Shown here one piece after another: positions 36,129 through 43,078 of a stretch of DNA of 64,000 nucleotides. Source of the stretch: Companilactobacillus heilongjiangensis (lineage in GTDB: Bacteria; Bacillota; Bacilli; Lactobacillales; Lactobacillaceae); contig NZ_CP012559.1 of NCBI RefSeq assembly GCF_000831645.3, forward strand, positions 62,001-126,000. Direction: 5' to 3'. Each line of letters starts with the position of its first letter. The first letter of the stretch is position 1. Both the position numbers and the translations under genes were made by a program. The notes under the pieces are model-generated. The model was not told the origin of the DNA and did not search any database. It saw only the letters and a program-made list of their open reading frames with translations.

Positions 36129-36218
36129 TCACTTTTTGTCGTTATGAATGTATGTTAGCAAGGCAATCAAAAATATGCCGAAAGTTAACATCAAGCTCAT
36201 AGCGTCAAAAACAGACAA
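36129..36218 (-). CDS. Holin-like type I toxin peptide (29 aa)
   Basis: TTG start at 36218 with a perfect AAGGAGGT 8 nt upstream (36228-36235). The peptide begins MSVFDAMSLMLTFGIFLIAL and continues LTYIHNDKK: one membrane helix with a short charged tail, the pattern of the putative holin-like toxin family (Hol_Tox, PF16935; typical A-L-L-T-Y-I ending). It would depolarise the membrane if its mRNA escaped the antisense RNA. An 83-aa frame on the opposite strand over this locus is a shadow. Confidence 0.78.
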   Translation of the reverse strand: MSVFDAMSLMLTFGIFLIALLTYIHNDKK

Positions 36219-36509
36219 AAAGAGCAACCTCCTTTCCTCGAAATGTAGGAACTCATGTGTAAAAAACCATAAGCATCACTTCTTTCGATATAAGCCACCG
36301 TCATTAACTTACTATCGATTATTATTATCTACCAAATATTTTTTTCTAGATATCAATAAAAGCAGGTTGCTTAAGATTAATATTTTCTCTTATTATTGAG
36401 ATCATGTAAAAAGTCATTGTGGATATAAGCCAGTTCTTAATTCAAATTATTGTACTAGGCAATCCAAAGATGTTAAGATAACTACTTGCTGGAAACAATT
36501 GTAGACACT

Positions 36510-36561: not shown

Positions 36562-36634
36562 TGGGTGGTTGGGGGATCGAACCCCAGACCCACGGATTAA
36601 GAGTCCGTTGCTCTGCCAGCTGAGCTAACCACCC
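36562..36634 (-). tRNA. tRNA-Lys (CTT)
   Basis: 73 nt cloverleaf: acceptor GGGTGGT/ACCACCC, D arm AGCTCAGCTGGCAGAGC, anticodon loop CTCTTAA with anticodon CTT, T arm GGGGTTCGATCCCC, discriminator A. CCA is not encoded. Confidence 0.97.
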
Positions 36635-36889: not shown

Positions 36890-37072
36890 TTAGTTGGAAG
36901 AGCTGAGAGTATTCATCCGCAGCGAAAGTGGCGTTATTGCTTTAGCAATTACACCACCGGACGTGTTGGAGACTTTCCGGTTTCGGGAAAGGCTTCAACC
37001 GAGGCCCGAGACCGTTCTTTGGCTCGGACCGTGCCACGCAGCAGATGAATACTCTCAGCTCTTGAAACGGAA
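36890..37072 (+). repeat. Palindromic element PE, full copy, upstream of walR
   Basis: Arms AGAGCTGAGAGTATTCATC and GATGAATACTCTCAGCTCT. Hairpin 1 has GCGTTATTGC TTTA GCAATTACACC, hairpin 2 ACTTTCCGG...GGAAAGGCTTC. It sits 85 bp before the walR start, so it lies inside or just above the promoter of an essential operon. Confidence 0.87.
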
Positions 37073-37157
37073 TACGCCAATAAACTCTCAATCTTATGGT
37101 GCTTTTGTTTTAATAACTAATAACTTGTATAATATTCACGTCAAGGAGATAAATTAT

Positions 37158-37859
37158 ATGGCTAAAAAAATTCTAGTAGTAGATGATGAAAAACCAATTT
37201 CCGACATTGTTAAATATAATTTGGAAAATGAAGGCTACGAAGTCATAACTGCTTTTGATGGACAAGAAGCTTTGGATAAAGTTGATGAGGATGATCCAGA
37301 CCTTATTTTGCTTGATCTAATGCTTCCGGTTATTGACGGTCTTGAAGTAGCAAGAACTATCAGAAAAACTAAAGATACTCCAATTATTATGTTAACGGCC
37401 AAGGATACCGAAATTGATAAGGTTATTGGCCTAGAACTTGGGGCAGATGATTATGTCACTAAGCCATTCTCTAATCGGGAATTAGTTGCCCGTGTTAAGG
37501 CACGGTTAAGAACCCAAACACACGCTCGCAGTGAAGATACTAAAACTAGTGAGATTAAAATTGGTGATTTAACTATTCTTCCCGATGCTTATACTGTCAC
37601 AAAAAACGGTAAGGAAATTGAATTAACTCATCGTGAGTTCGAATTGTTACATTATCTAGCTCAACATATTGGACAAGTAATGAAACGTGAACACTTGCTT
37701 CAAACAGTATGGGGCTACGATTATTTTGGTGATGTCAGAACAGTTGACGTTACCGTTAGACGTTTACGTGAAAAGATTGAAAACAATCCAAGTCAACCAG
37801 AATGGTTAATGACAAGACGTGGCGTTGGTTACTATTTAAGAGACCCAGATAGTGAGTAG
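37158..37859 (+). CDS. walR: Essential cell-wall response regulator WalR (YycF)
   Basis: 233 aa from the ATG at 37158 (AAGGAG upstream); the frame is open further back only because it reads through the PE. Receiver domain with phospho-acceptor Asp53 ([13 protein letters not shown]) and C-terminal OmpR/PhoB winged helix ([40 protein letters not shown]). Controls peptidoglycan hydrolase genes with WalK. Unusually, walK starts 2 kb downstream, after a PE and an IS. Confidence 0.96.
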
Positions 37860-37860
37860 G

Positions 37861-37962
37861 TAGTTCCGTCTTCATAGCTGAAAGTATTCTTCTGCTGTGA
37901 GGGCAGGTATTGAATTTTGATTTTAGGCTCTGATGGATATCCCTCGTAAATTTCAAATAGAA
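37861..37962 (-). repeat. PE remnant after walR
   Basis: CCGTCTTCATAGCTGAAAG and TATTCTTCTGCTGTGAGG match the left arm of a reverse-orientation PE, starting one base after the walR stop. The remainder is lost. A separate hairpin, AAACTGATTAGC...GCGAGTCAGTTTTTTTT, follows at about 37971-38008 and can terminate walR. Confidence 0.55.
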
Positions 37963-38074
37963 ATTCTAAAAAAACTGATTAGCAGAAAATGCGAGTCAGT
38001 TTTTTTTATTAGTAACTTAAATTTGGAAAGAAAAATAATTAAAATAGAAATAGACGTTGATGAAATAGAATAAA

Positions 38075-38185
38075 TTAGTAGGAAGAGCTGAGAGTATTAA
38101 CCAGCTGTGGGTGTGGCGTTATGGCTTCAGCCATTACACCACCGGGCGTGTTTGGAGACTTACCGGTTTTTGGTAAGGCTTCAAA
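38075..38185 (+). repeat. Palindromic element PE, left half (split by IS110)
   Basis: TTAGTAGGAAGAGCTGAG and TATTAACCAGCTGTGG, then hairpin 1 (GCGTTATGGC TTCA GCCATTACACC) and hairpin 2 (ACTTACCGG...GGTAAGGCTTC). It stops at CTTCAAA, where the IS begins. The right half is at 39745-39821. Confidence 0.9.
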
Positions 38186-38198
38186 ACAACCTAAGATT

Positions 38199-38240
38199 AG
38201 TTCTGAGGGAAGATCAATTTCTTCTCTTAGAACTTTTTTT
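38199..38240 (+). terminator. Insulating terminator at the IS left end
   Basis: AGTTCTGAGGGAAG (38199-38212) pairs with CTTCTCTTAGAACT (38221-38234), 14 pairs including two G-T, followed by seven T. It should stop chromosomal transcription entering the IS. Confidence 0.75.
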
Positions 38241-38410
38241 GTACACTGGAGACAAAGCTAAGATCGTGCATGAACCTCGGGACTTCGAGTCCGTATTAAA
38301 AAATGATCTCCGTTATCTTCATTTCTTTAATCAGGTTTTAGGTTGTGGGACTTCGAGTTCGTGTTTAGGAAATGAGATTCGAAATGTTGATACGGATAGC
38401 TTTAGAAAGG
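38241..38410 (+). ncRNA. Probable IS110 bridge RNA (target- and donor-guide loops)
   Basis: Two modules of the same build occupy the transposase leader. Module 1: basal stem AGATC/GATCT (38261-38265, 38305-38309), apical hairpin GGACTTCGAGTCC, guides flanking it. GAACCTCGG (38272-38280) is the exact complement of the PE target right of the insertion (39748-39756), and TTAAAA (38296-38301) is one base off TTCAAA left of it. Module 2: basal AATC/GATT with ATTTC/GAAAT, apical GGACTTCGAGTTC. TTAGGTTGT (38338-38346) is the exact complement of the IS left end (38186-38194), and TAGGAAA (38366-38372) equals the right end plus core (39741-39747). This is the target loop/donor loop arrangement known for IS110 bridge RNAs. 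Confidence 0.8.
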
Positions 38411-38416
38411 AAAAAT

Positions 38417-39634
38417 ATGTCAGATATAATTGCTTTAGATGTGTCCAAAGGACACAGTTATTGTGTGCATTACAGCGATGGTAACTGCGTGAAAGAATTT
38501 GATTTTGAACATAATAAACTAGGTTTCGCCAAACTAAGCGAAACCGTTAAACGTGCTAATAATCCAACTTTTTATTTTGAGGCTACGGGTATATACTCTC
38601 GCCCCATAGAAAGATTTTGCAGGGATAATAAGATACCCTATGCTTTGTTAAATCCTCTTGAATTACACCTCAAGACAGAGAATTTGCGTCGTGTTAAAAC
38701 CGATAATAAAGATGCGCATAAGATAGCTCTTAGCGCCTATGATAATAGTTATCGGTTGATGGCATTTCAAAATCCTAAATATCTAGATCTTAGAGAATGG
38801 TGTAGATTTTACGAGAGAGTCGAAGACTCTCGTAAATTCAATAAAGTTGAATTACATAACGAGTTACAACAGACGTTTCCAGAAATGGAACAACTGTTTA
38901 CTAATAAGACATCTATTCTATCTTTAAATTTGGTTAGTCTTTTTCCGCATCCTGATTTAGTGTCTGGTATTTCTAGGACAAAATTAAAGAATATTTTGAT
39001 GAGTAAGACCGATAAAAAAATCTCCAGTGATAAAGCACTGGAGTATGCTGAAAAGTTAATAGTCTTTGCTAAGAATAGCTCTCCAGCAGTACGTGTAGAT
39101 AATGTTCAAGTGCAAGAAGTTAAATATTATGCACGTAAATTAAAAGACCTCACTATTGAAAAAAGAAAACTTAGAAAACAAATGATTCAACTCGGAAAAA
39201 CATTACCCGAATTTGAAATTATTGCTTCAATGCCAGGCATTGGTGAATTAACAGCTGCCATGTTACTGGGTGAAATCGGAGATTTCGCCAGATTTGATAC
39301 TTCTAATCAATTGAATGCTTACGTTGGGATTGACCTTATTAGGTACCAATCTGGTCAGTATCTCAGAAAAGATCACATAAATAAACGTGGAAATCCCAAA
39401 GCAAGAGAGATTCTATTCCTCACTGTCAGAAATATGATAAAGCAACAAGCAGCTGCACCTAATCACATCGTGGACTATTACTACAAACTAAAAAGGCAAC
39501 CCGTCCCTAAAAGGGACAAGGTTGCCACAGTGGCTTGCATGAACAAGACACTGAAATGTCTGTTCTCCATGATTAGAAACAAGACTAAATATGCTTATGC
39601 ATATACGGACTCAAGGTCCATAGAGACACTCTAG
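38417..39634 (+). CDS. IS110-family transposase (DEDD recombinase)
   Basis: 405 aa; ATG 38417 with AGAAAGG upstream. N-terminal RuvC-like DEDD domain: Asp8 in IIALDVSKGHSY, Glu55 in TFYFEATGIYS, Asp96/Asp99 in VKTDNKDAHKIA. A coiled central region (about 225-262) precedes the C-terminal Tnp_20 domain: SMPGIGELTAAMLLGEIGDF and the catalytic Ser312 of YQSGQYLRKDHINKRGNPKA. All catalytic residues are present and the frame is intact, so it is probably active with the leader bridge RNA. Confidence 0.95.
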   Translation: MSDIIALDVSKGHSYCVHYSDGNCVKEFDFEHNKLGFAKLSETVKRANNPTFYFEATGIYSRPIERFCRDNKIPYALLNPLELHLKTENLRRVKTDNKDAHKIALSAYDNSYRLMAFQNPKYLDLREWCRFYERVEDSRKFNKVELHNELQQTFPEMEQLFTNKTSILSLNLVSLFPHPDLVSGISRTKLKNILMSKTDKKISSDKALEYAEKLIVFAKNSSPAVRVDNVQVQEVKYYARKLKDLTIEKRKLRKQMIQLGKTLPEFEIIASMPGIGELTAAMLLGEIGDFARFDTSNQLNAYVGIDLIRYQSGQYLRKDHINKRGNPKAREILFLTVRNMIKQQAAAPNHIVDYYYKLKRQPVPKRDKVATVACMNKTLKCLFSMIRNKTKYAYAYTDSRSIETL

Positions 39635-39729
39635 TATCTCTATTCCAAATACTAACTCTTACCTTCATAATTTTAAAGTCATAAGTTATGAAGTACTGTT
39701 TAGAATACTCTCATTTTCCTGATTCTCAC

Positions 39730-39744
39730 TTGACTAATCGTAGG
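39730..39744 (+). promoter_or_regulatory. Outward -35 at IS right end (half of a circle-junction promoter)
   Basis: TTGACT at 39730-39735 points out of the right end. In a circular IS it would lie 18 bp from TAAGAT (38192-38197) of the left end, forming a promoter for the bridge RNA and transposase. In the inserted form it may drive walK instead, but no matching -10 is seen at the right spacing. Confidence 0.55.
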
Positions 39745-39821
39745 AAACCGAGGTTCGAGACCGCTCTTTGGCTCGGACCGGTCCGCATAGCAGGTTAATA
39801 CTCTCAGCTCTGGATACGGCA
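39745..39821 (+). repeat. Palindromic element PE, right half (split by IS110)
   Basis: AAACCGAGGTTCGAGACCGC, CTCGGACCGGTCCGCATAGC, then arm GGTTAATACTCTCAGCTCTG pairing with the left-half arm across the IS. CACATTTAATCTGG follows. Confidence 0.9.
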
Positions 39822-39879
39822 CATTTAATCTGGAAGCTGTATAATATACATAAGTCTGTACAATTTAGGTGGAAATATT

Positions 39880-41775
39880 TTGAAAAATAGATTTGTCTTT
39901 TTACATTCGATTAACTTCAAAATCGGATTGTCTTTTATTTTAATTTTAATCGTCACAATTGAAATCATTGGGGCCTATTTTGTGCGTCAGCTGGAGGATC
40001 AAAATGTTGCTAATTTTGAAACTTCCGTTCAGGTGCCGGCTTATACAATTAATCAAATTTCGGAAAATTTAACGGATAATGATCAACATACCCGTGAAAA
40101 TATCGGAAATGCGATTCAAGATTATTCACGTGTCAGCACCGATATTACCGACGTACAAGTAATTGATCGTAGCGGCATTATCGTGGGTGCCAAGGATTCG
40201 GATGGTGCCAATATTGTCGGAACGCAGACTTTGAAAGATAACATCAAACAAAGTATTCGAACTGATAAAAAAATTACCCAAATTTACTATGAAAAACAAA
40301 ATGGTAGTTCTTACGAGTCAATCGTACCAGTAACTTCACCGGATAATAGTACGGTTGTCGGAGCTATTTATGTTCGTGCCAGCATGGAATCAGTTTATAC
40401 CGGTATCAACAGTATTATTCTGATTTTCCTAACAGCGTCCTTAGTAGCCGGCTTATTGGGTGCCACGATTGCCATTTTCATTTCACGAGCAATTACTCGA
40501 CCTATTGATGAAATGAAGCAGCAGGCGGTCAGAATGGCTGAGGGAGATTATTCCGGACAAGTTCGTGTTTACTCTCCTGATGAGTTGGGACAATTGGCGA
40601 TGGCTGTTAATGATTTGTCGGTTAAAGTCGAAGAGGCCACCGAGAACTCGGAGTCTGAGCGACGAAGGCTGGACAGTGTTTTGACCCAAATGTCAGATGG
40701 TGTTATCGCCACAAATCGTTTGGGAAATATTACTGTTATCAACGAAATGGCTCAAGAATTTTTGGAAAAAGATGAAGATGAAGCTATCGGTCAACCATTA
40801 GTAGAAGTTTTGGGTATCAAGGATCGGACAAGTTTTGATGACTTGCTGGAAAACCCTGACCCAATGGTTATTGAAACGAACGATAACAATGATGATTACG
40901 ATGAAACTGATGATAATTCGTTGATTTTAAACGCTGATTTCTCGTTGATTCAAAGAAATAGTGGCTTTATCAGTGGTATGGTTTGTGTTCTACATGATGT
41001 CACTGAACAACAAAAAATCGATAGCGAACGTCGTCAATTCGTTTCCAATGTTTCGCATGAGTTGAGAACACCTTTGACAAGTATCAGTAGTTATATTGAT
41101 GCTTTGAACAACGGTGCTTGGAAAGATCAGAAGTTGGCACCACAGTTCTTGGGCGTTACAGCTGAAGAAACTGACCGAATGATTCGAATGATTAAGGATC
41201 TCTTGAGTTTGTCACGAATGGATCAAGGTCGTTCGAAACTTGATAAAGAGTTAGTTAACTTCAATGAATTTTTCTCATACATTTTGGATCGTTTTGATAT
41301 GATGTTGAAAAAGGAAAAGGCTGATGCTAAAGAAGATGATACGAAAGTTGTTAAAAACTATCGTATCAAGCGTATTTTCACCAGCAAGGACCTTTGGGTC
41401 GAAATTGATACTGATAAGATGACCCAAGTTATCGATAATATTATGAATAATGCCATCAAGTATTCACCAGATGGGGGTGTCATAACTTGTCGTTTGTTGG
41501 AGACTAATAAACATATTATTATTAGTATTTCCGATGAAGGCCTTGGTATTCCTAGAAAGGATATTAAGAAAGTCTTTGAACGTTTCTATCGTGTTGATAA
41601 AGCACGTTCTAGAAAACAAGGTGGTACCGGACTAGGTCTATCCATTTCGAAAGAAATTGTTGAGCAACATAAGGGTAGAATCTGGGTCAACAGTGCTGAA
41701 GGTAAGGGATCAACATTCTACATTTCCTTGCCATTTGATCCTAACGAGACAGGAGGAGAATGGGATGAAGTTTAG
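39880..41775 (+). CDS. walK: Essential cell-wall sensor histidine kinase WalK (YycG)
   Basis: 631 aa; TTG start at 39880 (AGGTGG upstream). Helix 1 (about 13-33), extracellular PAS-like domain, helix 2 (about 176-202), HAMP, cytoplasmic PAS (about 262-385), HisKA with FVSNVSHELRTPLTSISSYI, and HATPase with IMNNAIKYSPDGG, ISDEGLGIP and GGTGLGLSIS. TATAATATAC at about 39840-39849 may be a private promoter, needed because the IS and PE separate it from walR. Phosphorylates WalR. Confidence 0.96.
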   Translation: MKNRFVFLHSINFKIGLSFILILIVTIEIIGAYFVRQLEDQNVANFETSVQVPAYTINQISENLTDNDQHTRENIGNAIQDYSRVSTDITDVQVIDRSGIIVGAKDSDGANIVGTQTLKDNIKQSIRTDKKITQIYYEKQNGSSYESIVPVTSPDNSTVVGAIYVRASMESVYTGINSIILIFLTASLVAGLLGATIAIFISRAITRPIDEMKQQAVRMAEGDYSGQVRVYSPDELGQLAMAVNDLSVKVEEATENSESERRRLDSVLTQMSDGVIATNRLGNITVINEMAQEFLEKDEDEAIGQPLVEVLGIKDRTSFDDLLENPDPMVIETNDNNDDYDETDDNSLILNADFSLIQRNSGFISGMVCVLHDVTEQQKIDSERRQFVSNVSHELRTPLTSISSYIDALNNGAWKDQKLAPQFLGVTAEETDRMIRMIKDLLSLSRMDQGRSKLDKELVNFNEFFSYILDRFDMMLKKEKADAKEDDTKVVKNYRIKRIFTSKDLWVEIDTDKMTQVIDNIMNNAIKYSPDGGVITCRLLETNKHIIISISDEGLGIPRKDIKKVFERFYRVDKARSRKQGGTGLGLSISKEIVEQHKGRIWVNSAEGKGSTFYISLPFDPNETGGEWDEV

Positions 41776-43078
41776 TCGATTAATTGTCCAGGTATTTTTA
41801 GCCGTGGCAGTGATTACCAGTATTGTCCTATCCTTCTTCATCTGGACTAATACTGCGCGCTATCAACGAGGCAGAAACATTGATGTGACGTCCGCTGAAT
41901 CAAATAAGAATGAAATTCCGATGAACCAAGTTATCAGTCCGACTTCGGTAATTTGGCACGATGAAGATGATCAACATTTGATTTATAACAGTAATGAAAA
42001 CATTTCACTAAGTATCCAAAAAGTTATGCAGGATTGGAAGATTAGCGAACCTAAACAAGTTTCTTCAAAGGATGGAGCTTATTACCAAAAGATTATTCAG
42101 GGTAAGAATATGTTGCAGATGGTCTATCCAACCGCAATTTCCATCAATACTTTTGGTTACTTGTTGAACAATGATAGTTTGAAAAATGATAAGTCTAATC
42201 AATTCAATCGTATTTTGGTTAATTTAAAGGATAAGAAAGACCCTAATATTTATTTGGCTAATGACAATAATTATGCCGTTTATAAAGCCAAGTTGAAGAA
42301 TGCTTCATCGGTACCATTAAAGAAGCTAGTTAAGAAAGCAAATATTAACTTAAAAGTTCGTTTGAATATTATGAAACATGGTGTCTTCACGTTTTACGTT
42401 GATCCTATCAAGTTGAAGACATACTCATATGTCATCAGTGGTAAACAAGACGGCGAATACACGACTGCTTTGTTTGATTCCAATACGAATGGTTTAGTAA
42501 CTTCGGAAGATAATGGCGTATATACATATAATTACGGAGAATCGAAACGTTTAATTTCTGATCACAATACCGATGAGTTAACTTTTGAAGATTATACTGA
42601 TACGTCTGTTCCAAAAACGCAGTTGGCATTTTTGCAACGAGGCTATCAAAAGATTACTAATCTTCAAAATTCTATCTCTAACTTGCGTCTTTACAGTGCT
42701 AATTGGGATGACAAAGATTTGGTTTTCCGCGAATATGTTGAAGGTTTCCCAATCTTTAAAAAGAGCCAGTTTGGTTCGATTCGTATCAAATTTAGTCGTA
42801 AGGGCAGTACCGAGCATTTCTTGAATAAAGTTCTCGAAGTTCCTGTGCCATCTAACCAAGCAGCCACTAAATTGAAGTCAACGAATGCCATCTTTAAAGG
42901 CTTACAACGAGCTGGTTATTCTCCTAACGATGTGGAAGATATTGAAGTTGGTTATCAGTGGGAAGCTGAGGCTGACAATGAGAAAGTTGTCGATTTGAAA
43001 CCTACTTATTATGTTAAAATCGATAGTCATTGGAAGTCATACGATGAGTGGACAAATGAAAGTGCGGAGGAAGATTAA
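41765..43078 (+). CDS. walH: WalK regulatory protein WalH (YycH)
   Basis: 437 aa; ATG 41765 overlaps the walK stop by 11 bp, with AGGAGG at 41751-41756. One N-terminal membrane helix (LIVQVFLAVAVITSIVLSFF), then an extracellular YycH domain. With WalI it adjusts WalK activity at the membrane. Its position in the operon supports the call more than any single motif. Confidence 0.9.
   Translation: MKFSRLIVQVFLAVAVITSIVLSFFIWTNTARYQRGRNIDVTSAESNKNEIPMNQVISPTSVIWHDEDDQHLIYNSNENISLSIQKVMQDWKISEPKQVSSKDGAYYQKIIQGKNMLQMVYPTAISINTFGYLLNNDSLKNDKSNQFNRILVNLKDKKDPNIYLANDNNYAVYKAKLKNASSVPLKKLVKKANINLKVRLNIMKHGVFTFYVDPIKLKTYSYVISGKQDGEYTTALFDSNTNGLVTSEDNGVYTYNYGESKRLISDHNTDELTFEDYTDTSVPKTQLAFLQRGYQKITNLQNSISNLRLYSANWDDKDLVFREYVEGFPIFKKSQFGSIRIKFSRKGSTEHFLNKVLEVPVPSNQAATKLKSTNAIFKGLQRAGYSPNDVEDIEVGYQWEAEADNEKVVDLKPTYYVKIDSHWKSYDEWTNESAEED

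What the first reader, a model, noticed from the sequence alone, without database searches (positions are those of the whole stretch)
38186..38410. IS110 leader reads as a bridge RNA whose guides match both the PE target and the IS ends
Two similar stem-loop modules carry GGACTTCGAGT(C/T)C hairpins flanked by guides. Module 1: GAACCTCGG is an exact 9-nt complement of the PE sequence right of the insertion; TTAAAA is one base off the left side. Module 2: TTAGGTTGT is an exact complement of the IS left end, and TAGGAAA equals the right end plus core AAA. Exact matches of 9, 9 and 7 nt in the expected order are hard to explain by chance and fit IS110 bridge-RNA logic. The natural target programme would be the PE core.
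Basis: partly seen in the sequence, partly recalled or inferred. Interest (0 to 1): 0.88.

Follow-up and report, generated by a model that had tools for sequence, protein, structure and literature searches.

The report
Bridge RNA with swapped guide order
A small bacterial jumping gene carries, just ahead of its transposase gene, what looks like a guide RNA whose two loops spell out its landing site and its own ends; comparison of sixty related copies supports this, and the guides sit in the opposite order to the best-studied relatives.

Summary
Confirmed: the IS110-type element at 38186-39744, inside a palindromic repeat (PE), has an upstream leader that reads as a two-module bridge RNA. The 9-nt complements to the PE right side (38272-38280) and the IS left end (38338-38346) are exact; both together occur in 1 of 20,000 shuffles. 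The left-side matches are weak in this copy. Across 60 elements with recognisable ends (the genome's four included), target-loop changes track insertion sites: 5.84 of 7 positions match, 3.83 with sites permuted, 0 of 2000. Three 96.5-97.1% identical copies in one genome carry three guides, each fitting its own site exactly. Donor-loop strands track the IS ends; helices show compensatory changes. New relative to papers I could read: in both loops the 5' guide pairs the top strand right of the core, the 3' guide the bottom strand left of it. That is opposite to IS621, ISEc21 and ISEc20, and like IS1111 elements, whose RNA lies downstream. The clade thus combines IS110-type RNA placement with IS1111-type guide order and a 12-bp subterminal inverted repeat. 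Transcription, binding and activity are inferred, not shown.

The parts
38069..38185 (+). left part of the interrupted PE repeat, ending in core AA at 38184-38185
   Evidence: query 49-165 matches many empty copies
38186..39744 (+). IS110-type element (core copies excluded)
   Evidence: boundaries from four filled copies and from empty PE copies
38190..38201 (+). left subterminal inverted repeat CCTAAGATTAGT; holds the -10-like TAAGAT of the predicted circle-junction promoter
   Evidence: read directly
38199..38240 (+). 5' stem-loop followed by T-run (terminator-like; in the position of the 5' stem-loop of a bridge RNA)
   Evidence: many double compensatory changes in 20 close leaders
38261..38309 (+). 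module 1 = target-binding loop (outer stem 38261-38265 / 38305-38309)
   Evidence: double changes at four of the five outer-stem pairs
38272..38280 (+). right-target guide GAACCTCGG (5' strand); pairs top strand CCGAGGTTC right of the core
38280..38292 (+). module 1 hairpin GGACTTCGAGTCC
   Evidence: five pairs, standard in 17-20 of 20 close leaders
38296..38301 (+). left-target guide TTAAAA including core (3' strand); unsupported in this copy and its close clade
   Evidence: z 4.8 over all, -0.1 in the close clade; p=0.63
38329..38379 (+). module 2 = donor-binding loop
   Evidence: outer stem only partly kept in relatives
38338..38346 (+). right-donor guide TTAGGTTGT (5' strand); pairs top strand ACAACCTAA of the IS left end
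   Evidence: (z 9.4)
38348..38360 (+). module 2 hairpin GGACTTCGAGTTC
   Evidence: one pair standard in 20 of 20 with 11 double changes
38366..38372 (+). left-donor guide TAGGAAA (3' strand); same sense as IS right end plus core
   Evidence: z 5.2 over all; no variation in the close clade; p=0.066
38417..39634 (+). IS110-type recombinase gene, 405 aa (stop included); D8, E55, D96, D99, S312 align to the IS621 catalytic residues
39730..39744 (+). IS right end TTGACTAATCGTAGG: -35-like TTGACT and right copy of the subterminal inverted repeat (ACTAATCGTAGG, 39733-39744)
39745..39829 (+). core plus right part of the PE repeat (AAACCGAGGTTCGAGACC...)

Best explanation
The 38186-38416 leader encodes a bridge RNA. 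Its first loop programmes insertion at the AA of ...TTCAAACCGAGGTTC... in PE repeats, and its second loop recognises the element's own joined ends (TAGG-AA-ACAACC). The DEDD/serine recombinase would bind one loop to each DNA, cut at the AA core and exchange strands. In both loops the 5' guide pairs the top strand right of the core and the 3' guide pairs the bottom strand left of it: the reverse of IS621 and the same order as IS1111 elements, although the RNA lies upstream of the gene. Shown: sequence complementarity, covariation of guides with sites and ends, conserved helices, conserved catalytic residues, insertion point. Inferred: that the RNA is made (probably from a TTGACT-17-TAAGAT promoter formed at the circle junction), is bound by the protein, and directs recombination.
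For: Guide-target covariation: 60 elements selected by end motifs only; 56 distinct guide-site pairs, mean 5.84 of 7 matched against 3.83 +/- 0.14 permuted, 0 of 2000; one site per distinct guide (30 guides, 57 elements), mean z 10.8, lowest 9.88 in 50 draws. Natural retargeting: G076 3x3 table 7/7/7 on the diagonal, 5-6 off it, elements 96.5-97.1% identical. Each loop strand tested with both possible partners (57 elements, 30-54 distinct pairs a test): 5' target guide with right target z=16.5, 3' target guide with left target z=4.8, 5' donor guide with left end z=9.4, 3' donor guide with right end z=5.2; the IS621-type partners give z -1.6, 0.1, -0.5, 1.2. Helix covariation. Catalytic residues. 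Copies at the same PE point: 4 of 4. Order controls read from sequence: IS621 and ISEc20 bottom-then-top, IS4321 top-then-bottom (partial, see full report).
Against: No expression or protein-RNA evidence. The left-target guide is not supported in the window's close clade (z=-0.1), where the right end does not vary either. For 12 of 30 guides some other element's site scores higher than the own site, as one would expect of short guides with mismatch tolerance. In the clade below 49% identity the IS621-type partner of the 3' donor strand has z=2.4 (12 of 1000 permutations). The outer stem of module 2 and the long-range closing stem are only partly kept in relatives. The guide columns were chosen by me after seeing matches, and permutation does not correct for relatedness of the elements.
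Confidence: 0.93

Rival explanations
1. The complementarities are chance or inherited: the element sits in PE by homologous recombination or protein-only targeting, and the leader is an ordinary regulatory leader.
For: PE is extremely abundant (474 cores within 3 mismatches), so landing in PE needs no precise guide; each 9-nt match alone has p of 0.005-0.006.
Against: Guides track sites across 56 distinct pairs and within one genome; all four copies enter PE at the same base; no permutation reached the observed right-target score.
Confidence: 0.03
2. The leader acts chiefly as a transcriptional attenuator or terminator (hairpin plus T-run, 38199-38240) that shields the transposase gene, and the guide matches are secondary.
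For: A hairpin with T-rich stretch lies just inside the left end in nearly all leaders aligned (compensatory changes).
Against: It does not explain the two downstream modules or their covariation with target and ends. The two roles are compatible.
Confidence: 0.04
3. It is an ordinary IS621-type bridge RNA and the apparent swap is a labelling artefact.
For: Polarity is defined relative to the transposase gene, so an inverted gene would swap the labels; my check of IS621 itself found only one of its four guide strands clearly.
Against: In IS621 and ISEc20 the RNA also lies upstream on the gene's strand, and the right-end-sense guide is in the 5' strand of the donor loop, as published for IS621; here it is in the 3' strand across the clade.
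Confidence: 0.04

Closest known systems
IS621 bridge RNA (IS110 group): Durrant 2024 PMC11208160, Hiraizumi 2024 PMC11208158
   Same: upstream RNA, 5' stem-loop then target loop then donor loop, dinucleotide core, promoter formed at the joined ends, DEDD + Ser recombinase
   Different: guide strands swapped in both loops; longer recombinase (405 aa against 326 aa); about 12-bp subterminal inverted repeat against the 2-3 bp the paper gives for the IS110 group
IS1111-type seekRNA (ISEc11, ISPa11, ISKpn4, ISPst6 in Siddiquee 2024 PMC11187229; IS4321 read here)
   Same: top-strand match 5' of bottom-strand match; similar layout [guide]-GG hairpin CCGTAT-[guide] in IS4321 (by eye); subterminal inverted repeat within 7-17 bp
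   Different: RNA upstream, not downstream, of the gene; recombinase of 405 aa in a clade of its own
ISEc21 seekRNA (IS110 type), Siddiquee 2024
   Same: upstream noncoding region; natural redirection reported in a relative, ISMch6
   Different: order of the target matches reversed relative to ours (from the paper; no ISEc21 sequence was examined here)
ISSep2 (Staphylococcus plasmids)
   Same: same end motifs and two-module leader (by eye); in the window's clade
   Different: 42% protein identity; another target guide

Membership tests
IS110 family recombinase | PF01548 + PF02371 domains | tested here: met
   NCBIfam NF033542 180.7 bits, cut-off 140
IS110 family recombinase | DEDD and serine residues | tested here: met
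bridge RNA | two loops complementary to target and donor | tested here: met
bridge RNA | guides covary with natural targets and ends | tested here: met
   left-target strand only outside the close clade
bridge RNA | RNA expressed, bound by the recombinase and essential for recombination | not testable with these tools
   needs experiments
IS110 group (IS621-type) | RNA in the left end, upstream of the gene | tested here: met
IS110 group (IS621-type) | 5' guide pairs bottom strand (left), 3' guide pairs top strand (right) | tested here: not met
   convention
IS1111 group | top-strand match 5' of bottom-strand match | tested here: met
   convention; IS4321 control
IS1111 group | subterminal inverted repeat of 7-17 bp | tested here: met
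   CCTAAGATTAGT / ACTAATCGTAGG, 11 of 12 (read; range)
IS1111 group | RNA downstream of the gene | tested here: not met
IS1111 group | transposase clusters with IS1111 transposases | tested here: inconclusive
   window clade 100/100 and apart from IS4321, but only one certain IS1111 reference, on a long branch

The most novel reading that the evidence does not exclude
A third bridge-RNA arrangement. In this Gram-positive clade the RNA is upstream (as in IS110) but the guide strands are in IS1111 order in both target and donor loops, so guide order and RNA position are separable. The recombinase should load target and donor with the opposite strand polarity to IS621, predicting first-strand cleavage on the other strand relative to the element. 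The two modules look like copies of one unit, and the RNA re-targets naturally by a few guide substitutions within one genome.
Probability: 0.65. Interest if true: 0.72.

Novelty: new variant of a known kind. Interest (0 to 1): 0.62.

Why it matters
Published work ties guide order to the two groups: Siddiquee 2024 contrasts IS1111 with IS110 by the order of the matches, and Durrant 2024 infers that the RNA moved between ends during evolution. This clade separates RNA position from guide order, so it constrains how the arrangement evolved and offers a family of about 400-aa recombinases with short, readable guides. The G076 triplet is a ready natural experiment in reprogramming. The right flanks of the sites fold into hairpins more often than control stretches (27 of 57 against 5 of 57), which suggests a low-harm landing strategy.

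Tried and rejected
Rfam gave only a tRNA and an rli28 match in the window (gathering threshold), no bridge-RNA family. A single RNAalifold consensus over 43 distinct leaders was weak; per-sequence folds and projection of the window fold onto 20 close leaders were used instead. A first tree picked wrong ORFs for several rows, the window's among them (very long branches), and was discarded; one search replaces it. Attempts to read guide order in more distant lactic IS110 groups gave ends but no clear order and are not used. The junction-promoter count (21 of 22) is not used as evidence for spacing: the pieces joined in that script have fixed lengths, so the 17-nt spacing is built in; for the window it is read directly. 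PE as source of the target guide by gene conversion was considered; nothing tested it. The figure panel with guides of ISPpu10, ISAar29 and ISHne5 (Durrant Extended Data Fig. 10c; legend seen) is not held, so a member with the same arrangement may already be drawn there.

Rows dropped: of 114 distinct loci with the gene start, 60 had both end motifs (L059 placed by hand); the other 54 (other or missing ends, truncations) were not analysed for guides. In some searches three of the 60 were left out (L011, L034, L042: leaders with deletions). One search kept all 60, which gave 56 distinct pairs.

Full report
Observation. The window holds an IS110-type element, 38186-39744, inserted in a palindromic repeat (PE). 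Its 405-aa product hits PF01548 and PF02371 and NCBIfam 'IS110 family RNA-guided transposase'; D8, E55, D96, D99 and S312 align with the IS621 catalytic residues (residues named in PMC11208158, passages seen). In 20,000 dinucleotide shuffles of the 176-nt two-module stretch the 9-nt right-target match has p=0.005, the 9-nt left-end match p=0.006, both together 1 of 20,000; the 7-nt right-end match p=0.066 and the left-target match p=0.63. So the two 9-nt matches carry the single-copy evidence and the left-side matches do not.

Insertion site. The genome holds four copies of the element. All four lie in PE copies at the same base. The four empty PE copies printed read GGCTTCAAACCGAGGTTC, and filled ones ...TTCAAAACAACC...GTAGGAACCGAGG; the core is AA, with one extra A on the right in the window copy. 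The right guide fits 9 of 9 in three copies; the fourth site begins TCGAGGTTC, one mismatch. A fifth site, L005, keeps PE plus 72 bp of the IS left end fused to the PE right part: a decayed copy.

Relatives. Transposase relatives were collected from genome contigs (11 loci), whole genomes and plasmids. Of 114 distinct loci with the gene start, 60 carry both end motifs (right TTGACTAATCGTAGGAA, up to 3 substitutions; left CTAAGATTAG, up to 2; L059 has a truncated left end and was placed by hand); four of the 60 are the genome's own copies. The leaders were aligned without their flanks. The alignment columns taken as guides were chosen by me after seeing matches; the same columns serve observed and permuted pairings.

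Targets track guides. For 56 distinct guide-site pairs the 7-nt 5' guide matches its site at 5.84 positions on average, 3.83 +/- 0.14 when sites are permuted, 0 of 2000 permutations reaching the observed value; small offsets were allowed equally in both. With one site per distinct guide (30 guides) mean z was 10.8 and the lowest 9.88 in 50 random draws. The own site was best or tied for 18 of the 30 guides; for 12 some other element's site scored higher. Permutation does not remove relatedness among elements. Examples: window GAACCTC / GAGGTTC; congener G001 GGGCCTC / GAGGCCC in one copy, one mismatch in the other. The cleanest case is genome G076: three copies 96.5-97.1% identical carry AGCCTCT, ATCCTCT and ACTCTCT and sit at AGAGGCT, AGAGGAT and AGAGAGT; each guide matches its own site 7 of 7 and the others 5-6.

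Guide order. Each loop strand was tested against both possible partners in 57 elements (30-54 distinct pairs a test; three leaders with deletions left out). 5' target guide with complement of right target: z=16.5; with left target (IS621 type): -1.6. 3' target guide with left target: 4.8; with complement of right target: 0.1. 5' donor guide with complement of the IS left end: 9.4; with right end: -0.5. 3' donor guide with right end: 5.2; with complement of left end: 1.2. Against this reading: in the close clade (34 elements, 49% identity or more) the left-target guide is not supported (z=-0.1) and the right end does not vary; in the remaining 23 elements the IS621-type partner of the 3' donor strand reaches z=2.4 (12 of 1000).

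Controls for order. Published convention for IS621: 5' side of each loop pairs the bottom strand, 3' side the top strand (PMC11208160, passages). In the IS621 copy examined (L168) the right-end sense ACAGTATC lies in the 5' strand of the donor loop; its left-end complement was not found clearly, and this copy adjoins a truncated one, so only one strand is confirmed. In ISEc20, whose transposase is about as long as ours (398 aa), the right-end sense TAATAGGGG precedes the complement of the left end (6 nt; positions 124 and 163 of its leader), and a 10-nt complement of the right flank is the 3' target strand in one copy; in a second copy that match is 6 nt, and in neither was the left flank found in sense. 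In IS4321 (IS1111 type) the RNA region is downstream and the top-strand match TTCCGTTTT (position 96) precedes a bottom-strand match (position 123; five bases, weak), as reported for ISEc11, ISPa11 and ISKpn4, while ISEc21 has the reverse order (PMC11187229, abstract and five sections read). The window's clade therefore combines upstream RNA with IS1111 order. Its ends also carry CCTAAGATTAGT / ACTAATCGTAGG, an 11-of-12 subterminal inverted repeat (read), inside the 7-17 bp range given for IS1111.

Structure. The window leader folds as a 5' stem-loop with T-run and two stem - internal loop - hairpin modules. Projected on 20 distinct close leaders, the 5' stem-loop, the outer stem of module 1 (38261-38265 / 38305-38309) and the hairpin of module 2 show double compensatory changes; the outer stem of module 2 and the long-range closing stem are only partly kept. 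The two hairpins are near-copies of each other; in one Enterococcus copy (L011) the stretch between them is deleted, as recombination between repeats would give.

Transcription (inferred). Joining the window's right end, AA and left end reads TTGACT-17 nt-TAAGAT (letters). The motifs recur across the clade, but they were also the search motifs, and the constant spacing is built into that script; this is a suggestion, not a test.

Evolution. In a 63-row tree the window's clade (43 rows) is 100/100 and apart from IS621, ISEc20 and IS4321, but these references sit on long branches and their mutual order is unsure.

What the targets are. 57 distinct right flanks of 60 nt fold better than stretches 105-165 nt further on (27 against 5 with z below -2 by mononucleotide shuffles; p=6e-7): the element tends to enter at the 5' side of hairpins. 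In this genome the PE core occurs 474 times within 3 mismatches, 0 in the reversed control, and 247 sites match AANCGAGGTTCGAGACC exactly.

Prior art. Literature searches in the held PMC library listed no paper that I recognised as reporting this arrangement in upstream-RNA elements; of the listed papers I opened four (PMC11208160, PMC11187229, PMC11208158, PMC12982343), in passages or sections. Durrant Extended Data Fig. 10c was not visible, ISfinder could not be consulted, and most subscription papers are absent, so novelty is provisional.

Verdict. Bridge RNA by the computable tests, in a clade with swapped guide order: a new variant of a known kind.

Noticed in passing
window 38069-38185 and 39745-39829; whole genome: The PE repeat is extraordinarily abundant: 474 cores within 3 mismatches in 2.79 Mb (reversed control 0); four empty copies fold at -83 to -104 kcal/mol per 240 nt. 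Congener G010 has 467 cores but no IS match at E<=0.001; the other 34 congeners searched have 0-177.
   Followed up: partly
L005 (G000:C1:1481326-1484514): Remnant of a fifth IS insertion: PE left half plus 72 bp of IS left end fused to the PE right part.
   Followed up: partly
L011 leader: Enterococcus copy whose two bridge-RNA modules are fused by deletion of the stretch between the repeated hairpins.
   Followed up: no
window 36894-43078: PE + IS lie between a response-regulator gene and a histidine-kinase gene (ORFs) that look like walR and walK (names recalled, no call), so the insertion splits what is usually one essential operon.
   Followed up: no
window 36148-36341 (-): Rfam rli28 match just above threshold (48.1 against 45 bits) near a tRNA at 36562-36634 (-).
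   Followed up: no
L142, L171-L174 (G122): Another lactic IS110 group: in 5 of 5 copies the left flank runs CAT... then a TTCCT-like stretch, i.e. a start codon with ribosome-binding site on the other strand.
   Followed up: partly
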